From Leclercia sp. LSNIH1 (lineage in GTDB: Bacteria; Pseudomonadota; Gammaproteobacteria; Enterobacterales; Enterobacteriaceae): a DNA stretch of 64,000 bases. Shown here one piece after another: positions 44,972-52,100 of the stretch. Made by a program: the position numbers and the translations under genes. A model generated the notes under the pieces. It ran no database searches. It was not told the DNA's origin and worked only from the letters and a program-made list of their open reading frames with translations. Position 1 is the first letter of the stretch. Each line of letters starts with the position of its first letter. Where the stretch lies: contig NZ_CP026167.1 in the NCBI RefSeq assembly GCF_002902985.1, positions 2,604,001 through 2,668,000 on the forward strand. Direction: 5' to 3'.

Positions 44972-46167
<1,196 letters not shown>

Positions 46168-46293
46168 CTAGTTAAATTGCGTCAGAAGCAGTGCAGCATA
46201 AATCACGAACATGAAAAAGAGCGTACCGATAACGACGCGGCGTTCGAGAACCAAACTATTTTTTTCAGAACTCTTTTCTGGTTTATTTAACAT
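46168..46293 (-). CDS. 41-residue single-span membrane protein after cutD
   Basis: A short gene encoding a charged N-terminus (MLNKPEKSSEKNSLVLERR) and one membrane helix (VVIGTLFFMFVIYAALLL). AGAGG lies 5 nt before the ATG at 46293. It begins 15 bp after the activase gene, so it is the last gene of that operon. Its TAG stop is part of the CTAG target duplicated by IS5, so the insertion left the coding sequence intact. Function unknown. Confidence 0.7.
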   Translation of the reverse strand: MLNKPEKSSEKNSLVLERRVVIGTLFFMFVIYAALLLTQFN

Positions 46294-46308
46294 GATTACC
46301 TCTTTTCG

Positions 46309-47268
46309 TTAGCCCACCATTACCCCTGAAACCCTTACCGGTAGGTTATATTTGTGGGTATGTTGTAAGAAGTTTTCTACTTGTGCAGCAGAGTCGTTCC
46401 ATTCGTAGGCCTTATTAAGTAAGGCATATTTCCCGGTGCCAAAACGATGGTAGGGAAGTAATTCGATAAATTTGAACGCAGGACGGTGCCAGGTCAGGGA
46501 ATGTATCAGCATGAACAATTTTTCAGCCTGTTCGGGGCTATCGTTAAAGTCTGGAATAACGGGGATACGGATAACGATCTGTCGATCTCCCTGCAATAAT
46601 CTTTCAAGGTTACGCAGGATGATCTTATTACTCACCCCGGTATAGCGTTTATGCTGCTCGTCATCGGCGCTTTTCAGGTCAAAGAGAATCAGATCGCAAA
46701 CCGATGCGATCTGTTTTACGGCGCGCCAAGGGGCGTACCCGGCGGTTTCAATTGCCGTGTGAATATCCTCTGCGCTAATTTTTTGCATGAGTTGTCTGGC
46801 AAACTCGGGCTGAGTGCACACTTCACCCCCGCTGAGGGTGATGCCGCCCCCGGATTGACGAAACCAGGTTTCATCCGCCATGACGCGGTTAAAAACGGCC
46901 TCTGAGGTCAGTTTTTCCCCTGTCACATTAAGTGCACCAGCCGGGCAGCTCTCTTCGCATCGCCTGCAACCCTGACACTGACGCGAGCGATCAAGCGTGT
47001 GCACACCGTCCACCCAACGATGTACGCCGGCTGGGCAGTGCAGGGCACATTTTCCACAGTGAAGGCAGCGCTCAGCATGCCAGAAGATCTCGCAGCCAGG
47101 GTTGAGCCCTTCCGGGTTGGCGCACCAGCGGCAGCGCATCTGGCAGCCTTTCAGAAACACAACGCTGCGAATACCCGGTCCGTCATGCAGCGAAAACCGC
47201 TGAATATGTGTTATCCAGCCGGATGCCGGCTCAGAAGCGACGTTGAGTGGTTCGGCTGATGATCTCAT
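46309..47268 (-). CDS. cutD: Glycyl radical enzyme activase, choline TMA-lyase type (CutD)
   Basis: A 319-residue radical SAM enzyme. Cys42, Cys46 and Cys49 (GCQMRCRWC) hold the SAM [4Fe-4S] cluster. Two ferredoxin-type clusters are in CLHCGKCALHC and CQGCRRCEESC, as in other activases of non-PFL glycyl radical enzymes. It abstracts hydrogen from the partner's glycine to make the radical. GAGGTG lies before the ATG at 47268, inside the lyase gene; the 38-bp overlap implies coupled translation. Confidence 0.9.
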   Translation of the reverse strand: MRSSAEPLNVASEPASGWITHIQRFSLHDGPGIRSVVFLKGCQMRCRWCANPEGLNPGCEIFWHAERCLHCGKCALHCPAGVHRWVDGVHTLDRSRQCQGCRRCEESCPAGALNVTGEKLTSEAVFNRVMADETWFRQSGGGITLSGGEVCTQPEFARQLMQKISAEDIHTAIETAGYAPWRAVKQIASVCDLILFDLKSADDEQHKRYTGVSNKIILRNLERLLQGDRQIVIRIPVIPDFNDSPEQAEKLFMLIHSLTWHRPAFKFIELLPYHRFGTGKYALLNKAYEWNDSAAQVENFLQHTHKYNLPVRVSGVMVG

Positions 47269-49612
47269 CCTGCACCTCTTTACTTAATTCAACGAAAAAG
47301 GCGCTGTATCCTGCGACACGGATCATCAGGTTGCGGTACTCCGCCGGGTTTTGCTGCGCCTTCAGCAGCGTTTCATCATCCAGGTAGCTGAACTGCAACT
47401 GGGCATTTCCCAGGATACTGGCTGTCCGCAGCAGATGGATAAGGCTGTTTTGCCCTTCCGGCGTTTCCAGCATGCCGTACATAAGCTTGATGTTATGGAC
47501 CATGCCGATATCCATCTCTTCAACATTGATTCGGCTGACCGAGTTGATGATCGCGGTGGGGCCCAGATAATCTGTCTGCTGGGCAGGGCTTATTCCATCC
47601 GCCAGCGGCTTGCCCGCAAGGCGACCGGATGGAAGGGCGCCGGTTATTAGCCCAAACGGCGTATTGTTCGAGATGGAGAGCGTGCCGAATGCAAAAGGTG
47701 CATACAGCATCCGATACTGACGATGCTCCTTTTCCAGAAAGTGCACGCTTTCACGGGCCATCTCATCCACGTCGGCAATGTCGTTACCGTATTTCGGCAC
47801 CCGCAGGCATGCAGTAAGGAGCGCCTCATAACCGACAAAATTATGGTCGAGCGCGTCAACAAGCTCTTGCAGCGTGAAGCGGGAGGTTTCAAATACCAGC
47901 CTCCTGATGACCATCAGAGAGTTCACGAAGTTGGCAAGCCCCGTCCAGATAAGACCCGGCCCCGCATTCAGAAACGCGCCGCCCTGGGTGACATCCTTCG
48001 CGGTGGCCATACAGCCCTCGATGAGGCTCGACATCAGCGGTTTTCTGGCATGATCCGCATGCAGTTTTTGTACGATGAGCGTGACCTGCGCGGCCTTTCT
48101 GACCATAGCGGATAACTGGGCCATAACCGCACGTTTGACATCTTCATAGCAGTGGAACTGCGACACCTCGCCGGTGCGGGGGCCTGTCTGCTTCCCGGCG
48201 CGCGAGCGGCCGTTATGCAGCGCCATCTCGATCGCTGCGGTGAAGGTGGTATAACCCACCGAGGTCCACTGGTACATTTTCCCTGCTTTCTGTGGCTCGA
48301 CGCAGCCCATCAGACAGTAGTCCCGGGCATCTTCATAGCTGAACCCTTTATGCAGCATCATGCGAATATGCGCATCATCGAAATGGCACGCCGGAAACCC
48401 CATTCCGCCGCGCACCACATCCACCACCTTGCGCACAAAGGACTGCGGCGACTGATTGTGAATTCGCACGGCCAGGCCCGGTTGATAAATTTTTAATCGC
48501 GCGGAGCAGTCCATAATGAGCAGCGTGAGCGGATTGGTGGCATCGCCGCCTTCACGCTTCTGCCCGCCGACCACGAGGTTGATAAAGGGCTGATACCCGG
48601 CGAAGTACATCGCCGTCGATTCGCTGCAAATCCACAGGGTTTCCGCCATCTTGATCAGCCAGCAGCAAAGCAGCTCTTCAGCCTGGGCATGCGTTAAGGT
48701 TCCGTCCCTGAGCTCGCGCTCCAGCAACGGCCAGAGATATTGATCGACGCGGCCAAGGGAGATCCCGGTCTGATTCTCTTCCAGCATAAACAGCGAATGC
48801 ACGAACCAGATAGCCTGCAGGGCATCGTAAAAATGCTGCGGAGGATGTTCAGGGACACGCTCGCAAATCGTGGCAATCTGCAGCAGTTCTTCCCGGCGAA
48901 GGGGGCGGGTCTCGGCTCCGGCCAGCTGGCGCAGATAACGCGCATAGCGCCGGGTGTAAGCCATCACGCCGTCACAGGCGTGCTGCACGGCGGTATAAAA
49001 ATTAAACGCCTCGATGCCGTCGGAGGTAGCGGGATCGAGGGCGGCCAGGTGCGCGGCTGCCTCATCCCGTATTCCCTTTATCCCTTTGGTCAGCAGAATA
49101 TTGTCGTAGCCCGGGCAAGCGTCACCGCCGCCGTTTTGGGTTTTAATCGTGACGTCGCATATCGCATCGTCATGACACCACTCCCACAGCCCGACGGTTT
49201 TTAGCTGCGTCTCCGCCATCTCATCCAGAGAGCGGCCTTGCCAGTAAGGAAATACCTCTTCCCGCAGGAGACGTTTCGTCTCGTCGTCAATCTGGTAAGG
49301 ATCCTGGGCCCGGAAAGGGAGGTTATCCAGCTCGTCGGCCACCCAGCGCCAGTTTATTTCCGGCGAAACTTCACCCCCGCGCGCGCCGCCCGCAGGGTGG
49401 CTGACGATAAGCTCGTTTTCGGCGACATATAAAGGCGCGTTCTCGCAGGCATGACGAAACGCTAACGCCCTGAGCAGAATATTATCCATTCCCGGATTGG
49501 CCTGATAAACCCGGGTGACGCTGACAGCCCGATGGGCAGAAATAAAGGGCTTCGCCTGTAAAAAGGCGTCGCGCAGCCGTTCCACACGCGATGGAAGGGG
49601 TTTGCTATTCAT
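47231..49612 (-). CDS. cutC: Glycyl radical C-N lyase, choline trimethylamine-lyase (CutC) type
   Basis: A 793-residue glycyl radical enzyme. The radical Gly768 (RVAGYSAFF) and thiyl Cys437 with Glu439 (GCVEPQ) are present. With a constant offset of 52 residues to the Desulfovibrio CutC numbering I remember, Asp216, Phe389, Phe395, Cys489, Glu491, Thr502 and Tyr506 match Asp164, Phe337, Phe343, Cys437, Glu439, Thr450 and Tyr454, which argues for choline or a close analogue. The position of Tyr208 is Ile156 if no gap occurs. The N-terminal extension of microcompartment CutC is missing and no shell genes occur nearby. AAGGA precedes the ATG. Reaction expected: choline to trimethylamine plus acetaldehyde, anaerobically. 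Confidence 0.82.
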   Translation of the reverse strand: MNSKPLPSRVERLRDAFLQAKPFISAHRAVSVTRVYQANPGMDNILLRALAFRHACENAPLYVAENELIVSHPAGGARGGEVSPEINWRWVADELDNLPFRAQDPYQIDDETKRLLREEVFPYWQGRSLDEMAETQLKTVGLWEWCHDDAICDVTIKTQNGGGDACPGYDNILLTKGIKGIRDEAAAHLAALDPATSDGIEAFNFYTAVQHACDGVMAYTRRYARYLRQLAGAETRPLRREELLQIATICERVPEHPPQHFYDALQAIWFVHSLFMLEENQTGISLGRVDQYLWPLLERELRDGTLTHAQAEELLCCWLIKMAETLWICSESTAMYFAGYQPFINLVVGGQKREGGDATNPLTLLIMDCSARLKIYQPGLAVRIHNQSPQSFVRKVVDVVRGGMGFPACHFDDAHIRMMLHKGFSYEDARDYCLMGCVEPQKAGKMYQWTSVGYTTFTAAIEMALHNGRSRAGKQTGPRTGEVSQFHCYEDVKRAVMAQLSAMVRKAAQVTLIVQKLHADHARKPLMSSLIEGCMATAKDVTQGGAFLNAGPGLIWTGLANFVNSLMVIRRLVFETSRFTLQELVDALDHNFVGYEALLTACLRVPKYGNDIADVDEMARESVHFLEKEHRQYRMLYAPFAFGTLSISNNTPFGLITGALPSGRLAGKPLADGISPAQQTDYLGPTAIINSVSRINVEEMDIGMVHNIKLMYGMLETPEGQNSLIHLLRTASILGNAQLQFSYLDDETLLKAQQNPAEYRNLMIRVAGYSAFFVELSKEVQDEIISRTTQRRF

Positions 49613-49624
49613 ACTGTCGATCCT

Positions 49625-49948
49625 TTAAAACGCAATCACGATGAGTCCGGCGACGATGCAGCCGATCCCCACCTTTTCCAGGGCGCTGCTGCGCAGTTGA
49701 TAAAAGATGCTGCTCAGGAGTGAAATCATCACAATGCCGGTTCCTGACCAGGCCGCTTAGGCGACAACCGGTGAAATCCAGCCCATCAGCATCGACAGGG
49801 CAAAAAAGGCTGTCGCGTAACAGATCAGGCAGAGAACCGTTATCAGCGTATTTTTGAATGTATTGGTTTGCGGCAGCATTAAGGTGGCAATCACTTCCAT
49901 TGAGACGGAAATAAAAAGCCAGAAAAAGCCAAATAAAATATTAACCAT
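49625..49948 (-). pseudogene. SMR-family exporter with in-frame stop codon
   Basis: The frame encodes a complete 107-codon SMR protein (E18 in VSMEVIATLML, four helices, ending GCIVAGLIVIAF) except that codon 64 is TAA at 49757-49759. The context VVA-stop-AAWSG corresponds to the AYAxWSG motif, so a Tyr codon, essential in EmrE-like proteins, has become a stop by one base. Downstream sequence remains in frame and intact, implying a recent change. It lies 14 bp from the intact SMR partner and 12 bp upstream of the lyase gene. Confidence 0.85.
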
Positions 49949-49962
49949 TTAAAACCACACTG

Positions 49963-50301
49963 TTATCTTTTTTGTTTGATAGCAAGGTTGAGAATTAATG
50001 TGCCAATAATAACCATGCACACACCTATCCACGAATCCTGTGTCAGGGTGAAATCAAAGTAACGGGTTTGTATAAAGGTAATACTAATGATCCCGACCGC
50101 AGACCAGATAGCATAGGCCACACCTATATGAATCCGCCTCAGGGCGAGAGATAAAAAATAGTAGCTAACGCCATAACAGATAATGGCCAGTACGCCAGCG
50201 GAGATAATTTTAAAACTGTCAGAAAGCGATAATAATGTTGTCGCGACGATTTCAATGGATACGGCAGCAATAAGCGCAGTAACGCACCTGGTTAAAGTCA
50301 T
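49963..50301 (-). CDS. SMR-family small multidrug/quaternary-amine exporter
   Basis: A 112-residue, four-helix protein of the small multidrug resistance family. The proton- and drug-binding Glu17 (VSIEIVATTLL) and GVAYAIWSAVG motif are intact. AAGGATAATCC precedes the ATG. SMR proteins often act as pairs; the partner downstream is broken. In this operon a role in moving quaternary or tertiary amines (choline, trimethylamine) is plausible but inferred. Confidence 0.9.
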   Translation of the reverse strand: MTLTRCVTALIAAVSIEIVATTLLSLSDSFKIISAGVLAIICYGVSYYFLSLALRRIHIGVAYAIWSAVGIISITFIQTRYFDFTLTQDSWIGVCMVIIGTLILNLAIKQKR

Positions 50302-50422
50302 TGGATTATCCTTGGTTATAAGTCACCAATAGTGTTTGGTTCAGGTAACAGGATGCCGGGCAGAATTTAATCCGCTTATTCTATTCTCGGTGAATTAAAT
50401 GAATACTTTTAAATAGCTCTGT

Positions 50423-51226
50423 TTAAATAATAAATATCCCCTCAAGGACCAGACAGGCCTCGCCCGTCAGCGTCACGCGGCCCGTATCGTTAATATGGCA
50501 GATCAACTCTCCTTTACGGCTGCCGCCCTGTTGTGCATGGAGCGTTTTTTTCGCCAGCTTATCGCTCCACAGCGGGGCCAGAAAGGTATGCGCCGAGCCG
50601 GTAACGGGATCTTCATTGACGCCCACCTGGGGCCCAAACCAGCGGGAGCGAAAATCAAACTGACGAGAAGGCGCCGTCACGACCACGCCGCGGGTGTTGA
50701 ATTTCGCCAGGGCGGTGAAATCTGGCGTTAAGCCGTCGAGTTGCGCTTCGTCATCCATGACCACGATCAGATCGGAGGCCTGCCAGATTTCAGTCGCCCC
50801 GGCAACGATGCCAAGTGCTGACAAAAGCCCGTCCGGGGCCGCAATCCTGCGGGGGGTGACGAGGGGAAAATCCATCGAGAATTTTCCATTATCCGAGGTA
50901 ACGGTCAGCTCACCGCTGCGGGTGGAAAAACGAACCGTCTTGCCCGACTCTTCATGGCGCAGAAGCACACTGGCTGCGGCAAGCGTCGCATGACCGCAAA
51001 GGTCGACTTCAACGGCAGGGGTAAACCAGCGAAGGGCGTAATCGTGGCCCTGCTTAACAACAAACGCCGTTTCGGAGAGATTATTCTCGCTGGCTATACG
51101 CTGTAACAGCGCATCCTCCGGCCACGCTTCCAGCAGACAAACCGCTGCGGGATTACCCGTAAACGGCCCCTGAGAGAAAGCATCCACCTGGTAAAAAGGA
51201 ATGCGTTGCGGATAACTATTTTTCAT
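50423..51226 (-). CDS. PhzF-family isomerase-like protein
   Basis: A 267-residue protein of the PhzF/diaminopimelate-epimerase fold with two similar halves. GNPAAV, the catalytic Glu52 in NLSETAF, and the VDLCGHATLAAA and EDPVTGSAHT blocks are present. PhzF isomerises a phenazine precursor, but most family members have unknown roles. Its start overlaps the regulator gene by 11 bp, so both are one unit. A 121-bp gap separates it from the SMR genes. Confidence 0.87.
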   Translation of the reverse strand: MKNSYPQRIPFYQVDAFSQGPFTGNPAAVCLLEAWPEDALLQRIASENNLSETAFVVKQGHDYALRWFTPAVEVDLCGHATLAAASVLLRHEESGKTVRFSTRSGELTVTSDNGKFSMDFPLVTPRRIAAPDGLLSALGIVAGATEIWQASDLIVVMDDEAQLDGLTPDFTALAKFNTRGVVVTAPSRQFDFRSRWFGPQVGVNEDPVTGSAHTFLAPLWSDKLAKKTLHAQQGGSRKGELICHINDTGRVTLTGEACLVLEGIFII

Positions 51227-51887
51227 TCATCACCTCAAGATCGTTATAAACCGTATAACGTGTCACACCCAGCGCCTGGGCCGCATGTTGCACGCCCCCC
51301 CTCATTTTAAAAATGCCTTTATCGCGCATCTCCGCAACGATTTTAAGGCGTTGCGTTTTCTGAATTTTCTTTCCGGTAACGGTATGTTTTTCAATAATTT
51401 CCTGAATTGATTGCTCAACAAGGCCACCCAGGTTGAGATCGGCTGCATCCGTTTCGGCAGGCGCGGTGGCCATGATGATGTCGAGACTTTTGCGAATGTG
51501 TTCATACGGCGAGGTGTCGACATTAATGCAGAAAGCCATCAGCGGATGGCCGTCATCGCTGTAGTAGATGGTGGAGGCGCTGTTGAGGATCTTCTCCGAG
51601 GCGGTCACGGTTTTATAATCTTTAACCGTCAAGGACTTACGTCCCTCGTTTTTACCGAGCAACAGGGCAAATCCCTTATCTTTCTCGGGGCCAGATAACA
51701 GGTGGTCGCCTTTACGTCTGCCGCTGACATGCCCGTTAATGATTTTGACAATCGAGCATTCGGGCGTGGTGAGATTGTGTAAAACGGCTTCCTGATTGGC
51801 GGAGAGCGTACCCGCCAGCGCCTCCATGGCGGCTTCCAGTGGCCCGGAAATTAGCTCAATCTGTTCTGCATATTCTGACTTCATCAT
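51216..51887 (-). CDS. YheO-like PAS/HTH transcriptional regulator
   Basis: A 223-residue regulator with an N-terminal YheO-like PAS domain (about 10-130) and a C-terminal helix-turn-helix (about 165-220, ALGVTRYTVYNDL). E. coli YheO and P. aeruginosa DauR belong to this group, which often senses small metabolites. It overlaps phzF and lies upstream of the lyase operon, so it is a candidate regulator of both. AAGGAAAA precedes two adjacent ATG codons. Confidence 0.87.
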   Translation of the reverse strand: MMKSEYAEQIELISGPLEAAMEALAGTLSANQEAVLHNLTTPECSIVKIINGHVSGRRKGDHLLSGPEKDKGFALLLGKNEGRKSLTVKDYKTVTASEKILNSASTIYYSDDGHPLMAFCINVDTSPYEHIRKSLDIIMATAPAETDAADLNLGGLVEQSIQEIIEKHTVTGKKIQKTQRLKIVAEMRDKGIFKMRGGVQHAAQALGVTRYTVYNDLEVMNEK

Positions 51888-51981: not shown

Positions 51982-52011
51982 ATTATACTCATAATGTTTA
52001 ATTATCAACAA
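51982..52011 (-). promoter_or_regulatory. Candidate promoter of the YheO-like regulator operon
   Basis: On the minus strand a TATAAT box (51982-51987) is preceded by TTGTTG at 18 bp (or TTGATA at 15 bp) in an AT-rich stretch, about 95 bp upstream of the regulator gene. Confidence 0.5.
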
Positions 52012-52100
52012 AAAGTTGATTTATGGTTTTTGCAGGGGTAAATTCACCGCCACTGATGGCGGGCTTCCTTCCCGGGAGCCTCTGAAAAGTGGGAACTAGT

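What the first reader, a model, noticed from the sequence alone, without database searches (positions are those of the whole stretch)
46168..51887. Microcompartment-free CutC/CutD-type glycyl radical locus with SMR, PhzF, YheO and a 41-residue membrane gene
Known choline TMA-lyases occur in large cut clusters with microcompartment shell proteins and aldehyde/alcohol dehydrogenases. Here the lyase and activase stand with two SMR exporter genes, a PhzF-like protein, a YheO-like regulator and a tiny membrane protein, and no shell or acetaldehyde-handling gene occurs in the window. Acetaldehyde would be released in the cytosol. This may be a separate form of anaerobic quaternary-amine cleavage, using the SMR protein to move the amine. 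Gene content is seen; substrate and role of the accessory genes are inferred.
Basis: partly seen in the sequence, partly recalled or inferred. Interest (0 to 1): 0.75.

Follow-up and report, generated by a model that had tools for sequence, protein, structure and literature searches.

The report
Shell-less choline-lyase-like operon
A bacterium of the Enterobacter group carries a compact gene set for an oxygen-sensitive enzyme that looks like the known choline-splitting enzyme but lacks one of its substrate-contacting residues and has no matching protein-shell genes, so its true substrate should be tested before it is counted as a trimethylamine producer.

Summary
The genes are real and in the stated order: YheO-like regulator, PhzF, SMR1, SMR2, CutC-like lyase, CutD-like activase, 41-residue membrane protein. 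SMR2 is interrupted by an in-frame stop in this strain but intact in four relatives. The locus type occurs in 5 of 61 genomes of the genus (own genome included), with a conserved promoter palindrome.

No PF00936 shell gene was found in this genome or in any of 7 genomes with this enzyme type; 33 of 35 Enterobacterales genomes classed as canonical CutC have shell genes. AdhE is present, so acetaldehyde has a possible cytosolic sink.

The lyase passes NCBIfam's CutC cut-off (1116.6 against 1050 bits), but belongs to a short type with Ile/Val-Lys where all 44 canonical sequences of the tree set have Tyr208-His209. Tyr208 contacts choline. Ten other catalytic and pocket columns tested are kept. 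The canonical sequences form one clade.

Verdict: new variant of a known kind. A cytosolic lyase for choline, or a close quaternary amino alcohol, is most likely; the substrate is unproven. Shell-free CutC is already in print, and Klebsiella's classical cut cluster also has SMR genes, so those points alone are not new.

The parts
52004..52020 (-). Palindrome ATCAACTTTTTGTTGAT in front of a TATAAT box, upstream of the yheO-like gene; proposed operator
   Evidence: 15-column core identical in 5 of 5 loci, full 17-mer in 3 of 5; only copy in the window with up to 3 mismatches, 0.10 expected. Not listed by the generic promoter scan. Function inferred.
51216..51887 (-). YheO-like PAS/HTH regulator (223 aa)
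   Evidence: PAS_6 and HTH_22; 77-91% identity in L025, L026, L004, L103
50423..51226 (-). PhzF-family protein (267 aa)
   Evidence: PhzC-PhzF 198.6 bits; TIGR00654 134.5 bits over its cut-off 76.2; 74-89% identity in the same four loci
49963..50301 (-). SMR1, intact SMR-family membrane protein (112 aa)
   Evidence: Multi_Drug_Res 66.7 bits; below every NCBIfam SMR cut-off listed
49625..49948 (-). SMR2, interrupted by an in-frame stop at codon 64; the 63-residue ORF is 49757-49948
   Evidence: Stop positions 64 and 108 of the frame; Multi_Drug_Res on the 63-residue piece 29.1 bits; no stop in L025, L026, L103, L004
47231..49612 (-). CutC-like glycyl radical enzyme (793 aa); Ile156-Lys157 at 49147-49142 stand at Tyr208-His209; Cys437, Glu439, Gly768 kept
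   Evidence: TIGR04394 1116.6 bits, cut-off 1050; columns
46309..47268 (-). CutD-like radical SAM activase (319 aa)
   Evidence: TIGR02494 338.9 bits over 174.35; TIGR04395 (CutD) 311.1 bits under its cut-off 360
46168..46293 (-). 41-residue predicted membrane protein, function unknown
   Evidence: 10 protein clusters at E 0.01 or better, all 41 aa; 21 of 41 columns invariant in the 10 sequences aligned
44972..46167 (+). IS5-family element directly after the operon (transposase 45040-46020), with CTAG duplicated on both sides; not part of the system
   Evidence: NF033581 366.8 bits; ends and duplication; absent at that place in L103 by alignment coordinates

Best explanation
The locus is a small anaerobic operon for cleaving the C-N bond of choline, or of a very close quaternary amino alcohol, in the open cytosol. 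Inferred steps: the YheO-like regulator acts at the promoter palindrome; the CutD-like activase makes the glycyl radical on Gly768; Cys437 takes a hydrogen from the carbon bearing the hydroxyl, with Glu439, Asp164 and Phe343 holding the substrate; trimethylamine (or its analogue) and acetaldehyde leave; AdhE removes acetaldehyde without a shell; an antiparallel SMR1-SMR2 pair moves amine across the membrane (probably not in this strain, where SMR2 is interrupted). Shown: gene content, order and conservation, family scores, kept catalytic residues, no PF00936 shell gene, an AdhE gene, the Tyr208-His209 to Ile-Lys difference, the SMR2 stop. Substrate, regulation, transport, use of AdhE, and the roles of PhzF and the 41-residue protein are inference.
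For: TIGR04394 cut-off met. The eleven best PDB sequences are all choline TMA-lyases, 936.8-1078 bits, the next enzyme 513.2. The equivalents of Asp216, Thr334, Phe389, Phe395, Met487, Cys489, Glu491, Thr502, Tyr506 and Gly821 are kept. 0 PF00936 matches in 7 of 7 genomes of this type. AdhE over its cut-off in 8 of 10 genomes searched, the window's included. SMR pair directly upstream of cutC in 6 of 7 loci of this type, the seventh cut off by its contig end. Conserved palindrome.
Against: Tyr208, a substrate-contacting residue of proven CutCs, is Ile and His209 is Lys; the Y208F/Y506F double mutant is reported to lose about 83-fold in catalytic efficiency (PMC12451663, passage), although the same paper computes little direct electrostatic effect of either Tyr, and Tyr506 is kept here. 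The CutD cut-off is not met. AdhE is not over its cut-off in G033 and G785. No choline transporter was sought or seen among the operon's genes. SMR2 is interrupted.
Confidence: 0.55

Rival explanations
1. Enzymes of this type cleave a substrate other than choline. With Tyr208 gone and a Lys beside it, the amine pocket fits a different amino alcohol (for example with larger or fewer N-substituents), and the CutC name given by databases is a mis-transfer.
For: The Ile/Val-Lys pair is fixed in 60 of 108 tree sequences, against Tyr-His in 44 and 4 outgroup rows. In D. alaskensis CutC Tyr208 is described as a substrate-binding residue (PMC8473560, passage). All Tyr-His rows form one clade. The activase also falls below the CutD cut-off. 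I saw no characterised member of this type in the passages read.
Against: Ten other pocket and catalytic columns are unchanged, including the cation-binding Phe395 and Asp216 equivalents; CutC cut-off met; no outside evidence for any particular other substrate.
Confidence: 0.3
2. The operon is decaying in this strain and does little here, whatever its relatives do.
For: In-frame stop in SMR2 against none in 4 relatives; IS5-family insertion directly after the last gene, absent in L103; in genome G610 the cutD match is also only partial.
Against: CutC, CutD, SMR1, PhzF, YheO and the 41-residue gene are open frames under purifying selection against L103; the IS lies after the last gene and opens none of them; the stop affects one gene only.
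Confidence: 0.15

Closest known systems
Type II.a cut cluster of Klebsiella pneumoniae (L031, CP125156.1)
   Same: CutC (56% identical over 789 residues), CutD (38%), an annotated SMR gene and a second SMR-like frame whose start is unclear
   Different: Four BMC genes, a EutN gene, PduQ-type dehydrogenase and phosphotransacylase in the cluster; CutC long (1128 aa) with Tyr-His; no yheO, phzF or 41-residue gene found by tblastn
D. alaskensis CutC (PDB 5FAU/5FAY)
   Same: Same fold family and catalytic residues, 937-940 bits
   Different: Tyr208-His209 there, Ile-Lys here
CutC not associated with a Cut microcompartment (Ravcheev and Thiele 2019, PMC6620236)
   Same: CutC outside a microcompartment, stated for 21 of 646 gut genomes (passage)
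   Different: Their sequences and gene orders were not seen (supplements not read), so overlap with this type is unknown
Tyr-type CutC-CutD-SMR-SMR locus of genus g32 (L066, L067, L068)
   Same: No shell gene within the fetched stretches; SMR pair beside cutCD; two of three genomes have no PF00936 match at all
   Different: Tyr-His enzyme, 86-87% identical to Klebsiella CutC, SMR pair downstream, no yheO, phzF or 41-residue gene found

Membership tests
Choline TMA-lyase CutC (TIGR04394) | Score over the curated equivalog cut-off | tested here: met
   1116.6 against 1050 bits
Choline TMA-lyase CutC (TIGR04394) | Catalytic Cys and Glu of the CxE motif and the glycyl radical Gly | tested here: met
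   Cys437, Glu439, Gly768
Choline TMA-lyase CutC (TIGR04394) | Choline pocket of the proven enzymes, including Tyr208 (and neighbour His209) | tested here: not met
   Ile156 and Lys157 at these columns; eight other pocket residues plus Cys, Glu and Gly kept or tested as stated; Leu698 and Ile700 not tested by column
Choline TMA-lyase CutC (TIGR04394) | Trimethylamine released from choline | not testable with these tools
   No assay
CutD activase (TIGR04395) | Score over the curated equivalog cut-off | tested here: not met
   311.1 against 360 bits; the general glycyl-radical activase family TIGR02494 is met, 338.9 against 174.35
Choline-utilisation microcompartment cluster (cut type I/II, GRM1/GRM2) | BMC shell genes | tested here: not met
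   0 PF00936 matches in the genome; EutN/CcmL family not searched
Choline-utilisation microcompartment cluster (cut type I/II, GRM1/GRM2) | Aldehyde and alcohol dehydrogenases and phosphotransacylase beside cutC | tested here: not met
   None among the seven operon genes; AdhE lies about 1 Mb away
Paired (heterodimeric) SMR transporter | Two adjacent SMR genes with opposite charge bias | tested here: inconclusive
   Bias is opposite in the intact pairs of L025, L026 and L065 (loop limits set by hand); in the window SMR2 is interrupted

The most novel reading that the evidence does not exclude
The Ile/Val-Lys enzymes are an unmeasured sister or ancestral group of glycyl radical C-N lyases with their own substrate; the familiar choline lyase arose from within them by one change to Tyr208-His209 and only then was taken into microcompartments. 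Databases and surveys that count every CutC hit would then mislabel plant-associated and sediment bacteria as choline-to-trimethylamine producers.
Probability: 0.25. Interest if true: 0.75.

Novelty: new variant of a known kind. Interest (0 to 1): 0.5.

Why it matters
CutC is used as a marker gene for bacterial trimethylamine production. Here is a widespread type that passes the standard annotation cut-off yet lacks a residue that contacts choline and, in the seven genomes checked, comes without PF00936 shell genes. If it makes trimethylamine, choline cleavage needs neither a microcompartment nor Tyr208; if it does not, counts of 'choline TMA-lyase' genes are partly wrong and a new substrate awaits. 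One in vitro assay decides.

Tried and rejected
Searches that gave no further locus of this type: plasmids, 11 records, all under 60% identity; E. coli genomes, no match at megablast level; the order of Desulfovibrio sp. DV, 36 of 199 genomes with a hit, 30 loci fetched and read at the key columns, only G785 of this type, the remaining hits not read; the genus of G785, 1 of 14; relatives of G610, 9 of 394 at 1e-300, only G610 of this type; genus of G610, 1 of 2. The contexts of the Brenneria, Erwinia, Serratia, Pantoea and Phytobacter members, known only as proteins, could not be reached.

Considered and dropped: (1) 'shell-free means new': in print (PMC6620236, passage) and found again in a Tyr-type lineage. 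(2) 'SMR genes mark a new system': Klebsiella's cluster has them too. (3) Ile-Lys as a trait shared with YbiW-like enzymes: pairwise alignment put Ile-Lys there, the multiple alignment Gly-Asn, so nothing is built on it. (4) Structure prediction was not run: solved CutCs at over 900 bits already fix the fold, and the tool gives no coordinates for pocket distances. (5) The type as an ancestral grade is favoured by the best trees, but one clade of it is not rejected (p-AU 0.143); offered only as the novel reading.

Against my reading: AdhE under its cut-off in G033 and G785; CutD cut-off not met; the promoter scan does not list the palindrome promoter; the phzF-SMR1 spacer shows no evident conserved block; YheO, PhzF and the 41-residue gene were not found in L065 or L001 (upstream of L001's cutC the contig ends), so they are features of the Enterobacter-group loci, not shown for the whole type; two Tyr-type genomes also lack PF00936.
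Full report
What is there. On the - strand of 46168-51887 lie, in transcription order, a YheO-like regulator, a PhzF-family protein, SMR1, SMR2, a 793-residue CutC-like glycyl radical enzyme, a CutD-like radical SAM activase and a 41-residue membrane protein. yheO and phzF overlap by 11 bp, cutC and cutD by 38 bp; the other spacers are 12-15 bp, except 121 bp between phzF and SMR1 (coordinates). SMR2 has one in-frame stop at codon 64 of 107 in this strain; L025, L026, L103 and L004 have none. An IS5-family element (44972-46167) sits directly after the 41-residue gene with CTAG on both sides; it is absent at that place in L103.

Which organism? Not told. A same-genus genome, G034, carries the locus at the same coordinates as the named record Enterobacter cloacae DSM 26481 (L002), and G033 matches the named MAG Leclercia sp. 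UBA7405; 'Enterobacter group' is inferred from this.

More than chance. tblastn finds YheO, PhzF, SMR1, SMR2, CutC, CutD and the 41-residue gene in order in L025, L026 and L103. In the incomplete MAG the same genes lie on pieces L004/L029 and L030; its 41-residue gene was seen only by reading frames. In the genus search 6 of 61 genomes, the window's own included, matched at E 1e-150; G992 at 38% identity is another enzyme, so 5 of 61 have this locus type. dN/dS against L103 is 0.081 (YheO), 0.107 (PhzF), 0.118 (SMR1), 0.088 (CutC), 0.179 (CutD) and 0.195 (41-residue gene); SMR2 was not tested. The 41-residue protein has 10 clusters at E 0.01 or better, all exactly 41 aa. Of 10 sequences aligned (the window, 8 of those 10 clusters, and the L030 frame) 21 of 41 columns are invariant.

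A conserved promoter element. Upstream of yheO stands ATCAACTTTTTGTTGAT (52020-52004, - strand), followed by TATAAT. Its 15-column core is identical in the window, L103, L025, L026 and L004; the full 17-mer is in the window, L103 and L026; TATAAT is in all but L026. It is the only copy in the window at up to 3 mismatches, 0.10 expected. The generic promoter scan did not list it. That the YheO-like protein binds it is inference.

The shell. PF00936 has no match in the window's genome, while the E. coli and Synechococcus controls ring. It is absent in 7 of 7 genomes with this CutC type: G000, G987, G009, G034, G033 (79% complete), G610 and Desulfovibrio sp. DV (G785). G786 and G787, reached through L002 and L004, also have none and are taken to be copies of G034 and G033. 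Of 35 Enterobacterales genomes classed as canonical have PF00936 somewhere in the genome; G161 and G702 do not. In 31 of the 35 the Tyr-His pair was read; G436, G471, G535 and G564 were classed by 54-55% identity and long frames. G161, G702 and G761 are one genus whose locus is CutC-CutD-SMR-SMR; G761's PF00936 matches listed lie near 4.63 Mb against cutC near 22 kb. A missing shell is thus typical of the window's type in this sample but not unique to it. EutN/CcmL was not searched.

Acetaldehyde. The genome has AdhE at C1:3662269-3664881 (1507.5 bits, cut-off 951). 8 of 10 genomes searched pass the cut-off; G033 and G785 do not. Its use here is inference.

The enzyme. TIGR04394 (CutC) is met, 1116.6 against 1050 bits; TIGR04395 (CutD) is not, 311.1 against 360. 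The eleven best PDB sequences are choline TMA-lyases at 936.8-1078 bits; the next enzyme has 513.2. A QM/MM paper lists around choline in D. alaskensis CutC: Cys489, Glu491, Asp216, Thr502, Tyr208, Phe395, His209, Thr334, Phe389, Met487, Tyr506, Leu698 and Ile700 (PMC12451663, passages; similar list without His209 in PMC12838924, one passage). It names 5FAY as the Y208F structure; in the alignment to 5FAY the substituted Phe stands opposite Ile156, which fixes the numbering. So Tyr208 is Ile156 and His209 is Lys157 here. The equivalents of Asp216, Thr334, Phe389, Phe395, Met487, Cys489, Glu491, Thr502, Tyr506 and Gly821 are kept (numbering by offset). Leu698 and Ile700 were not tested by column. 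The same paper reports an about 83-fold loss for Y208F/Y506F, and computes little direct electrostatic effect of the two Tyr.

How wide is it? In 124 sequences (the 120 listed of 1414 homologues, plus window, Klebsiella, Desulfovibrio sp. DV and Peptoclostridium) the column is Ile in 53, Val in 2, Tyr in 68, Ser in 1; each Ile/Val sequence is short, at most 822 aa. In the tree set of 108, 60 are Ile/Val-Lys, 44 Tyr-His and 4 outgroup rows; position 204 is Cys in the first set and Ser in the second throughout. Members named by their sources include Enterobacter cloacae complex, Brenneria, Erwinia mallotivora, Serratia ficaria, Phytobacter, Pantoea, Solidesulfovibrio and Desulfuromonas, all labelled choline trimethylamine-lyase.

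Tree. With two outgroup rows and the two trait columns left out, 17 Tyr-His rows form one clade (support 100) and the K/H state changes once on 48 rows, the outgroup counted as K. In the best tree the 29 Ile/Val-Lys rows surround that clade; holding them together is not rejected (p-AU 0.143). The larger FastTree run has the same outline, with weak support (0.498) at one deep split. These were quick runs without a mixture model.

The SMR pair. It stands directly upstream of cutC in six of seven loci of this type: window, L103, L025, L026, L004/L029 and L065; in L001 the contig ends there. In the intact pairs of L025, L026 and L065 the positive charges of SMR1 and SMR2 lie on opposite sides, as expected of a fixed antiparallel pair (loop limits set by hand). 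Klebsiella's cluster has an annotated SMR gene and a second SMR-like frame. YheO, PhzF and the 41-residue gene were not found in L065 or L001.

What is known. Two CutC types are described, I and II, with II.a long and II.b short (PMC5026066, passages; also PMC6325248, passages, and PMC7019844, passages). CutC not associated with a Cut microcompartment is stated for 21 of 646 genomes (PMC6620236, passage). Searches, as listings, showed no paper on a CutC group without Tyr208. The library leaves out most subscription papers, among them the primary structure paper (not held), so this is weak evidence of absence.

Verdict. It works like a choline lyase locus, and the enzyme meets the CutC cut-off and catalytic motif. 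One tested pocket feature of the proven enzymes is not met, nor is the CutD cut-off, and it is not a microcompartment cut cluster. I call it a new variant of a known kind. Choline or a close analogue is the most likely substrate (0.55); a different amine is the main rival (0.3).

Noticed in passing
window 44972-46167: IS5-family element with CTAG on both sides, inserted at the stop codon of the 41-residue gene; its end matches thousands of plasmid records over about 85-105 bases.
   Followed up: partly
L066, L067, L068 (genomes G161, G761, G702): A Tyr-type CutC-CutD-SMR-SMR locus without shell genes in the fetched stretches, 86-87% identical to Klebsiella CutC: a second, separate case of CutC without a shell cluster.
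   Followed up: partly
L065:11793-12353: In G610 the cutD-like frame is only 186 residues and matches the window's CutD over part of its length; it looks shortened.
   Followed up: no
L031 (CP125156.1): A 5.37 Mb record labelled as a Klebsiella plasmid in the plasmid collection; its size and genes suggest a chromosome.
   Followed up: no
L003 and L032: Pectinatus and Peptoclostridium glycyl radical enzymes about 40% identical to the window's, with Ser-Lys at the Tyr208-His209 columns; L032 has no annotated shell gene in the stretch fetched. Substrate unknown to me.
   Followed up: no
L028 (G057:C1:4832-7243): G057 has a second, divergent CutC-like enzyme (50% identical) with Tyr-His kept but Cys at the Thr334 and Phe at the Tyr506 column, on a long branch.
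   Followed up: no
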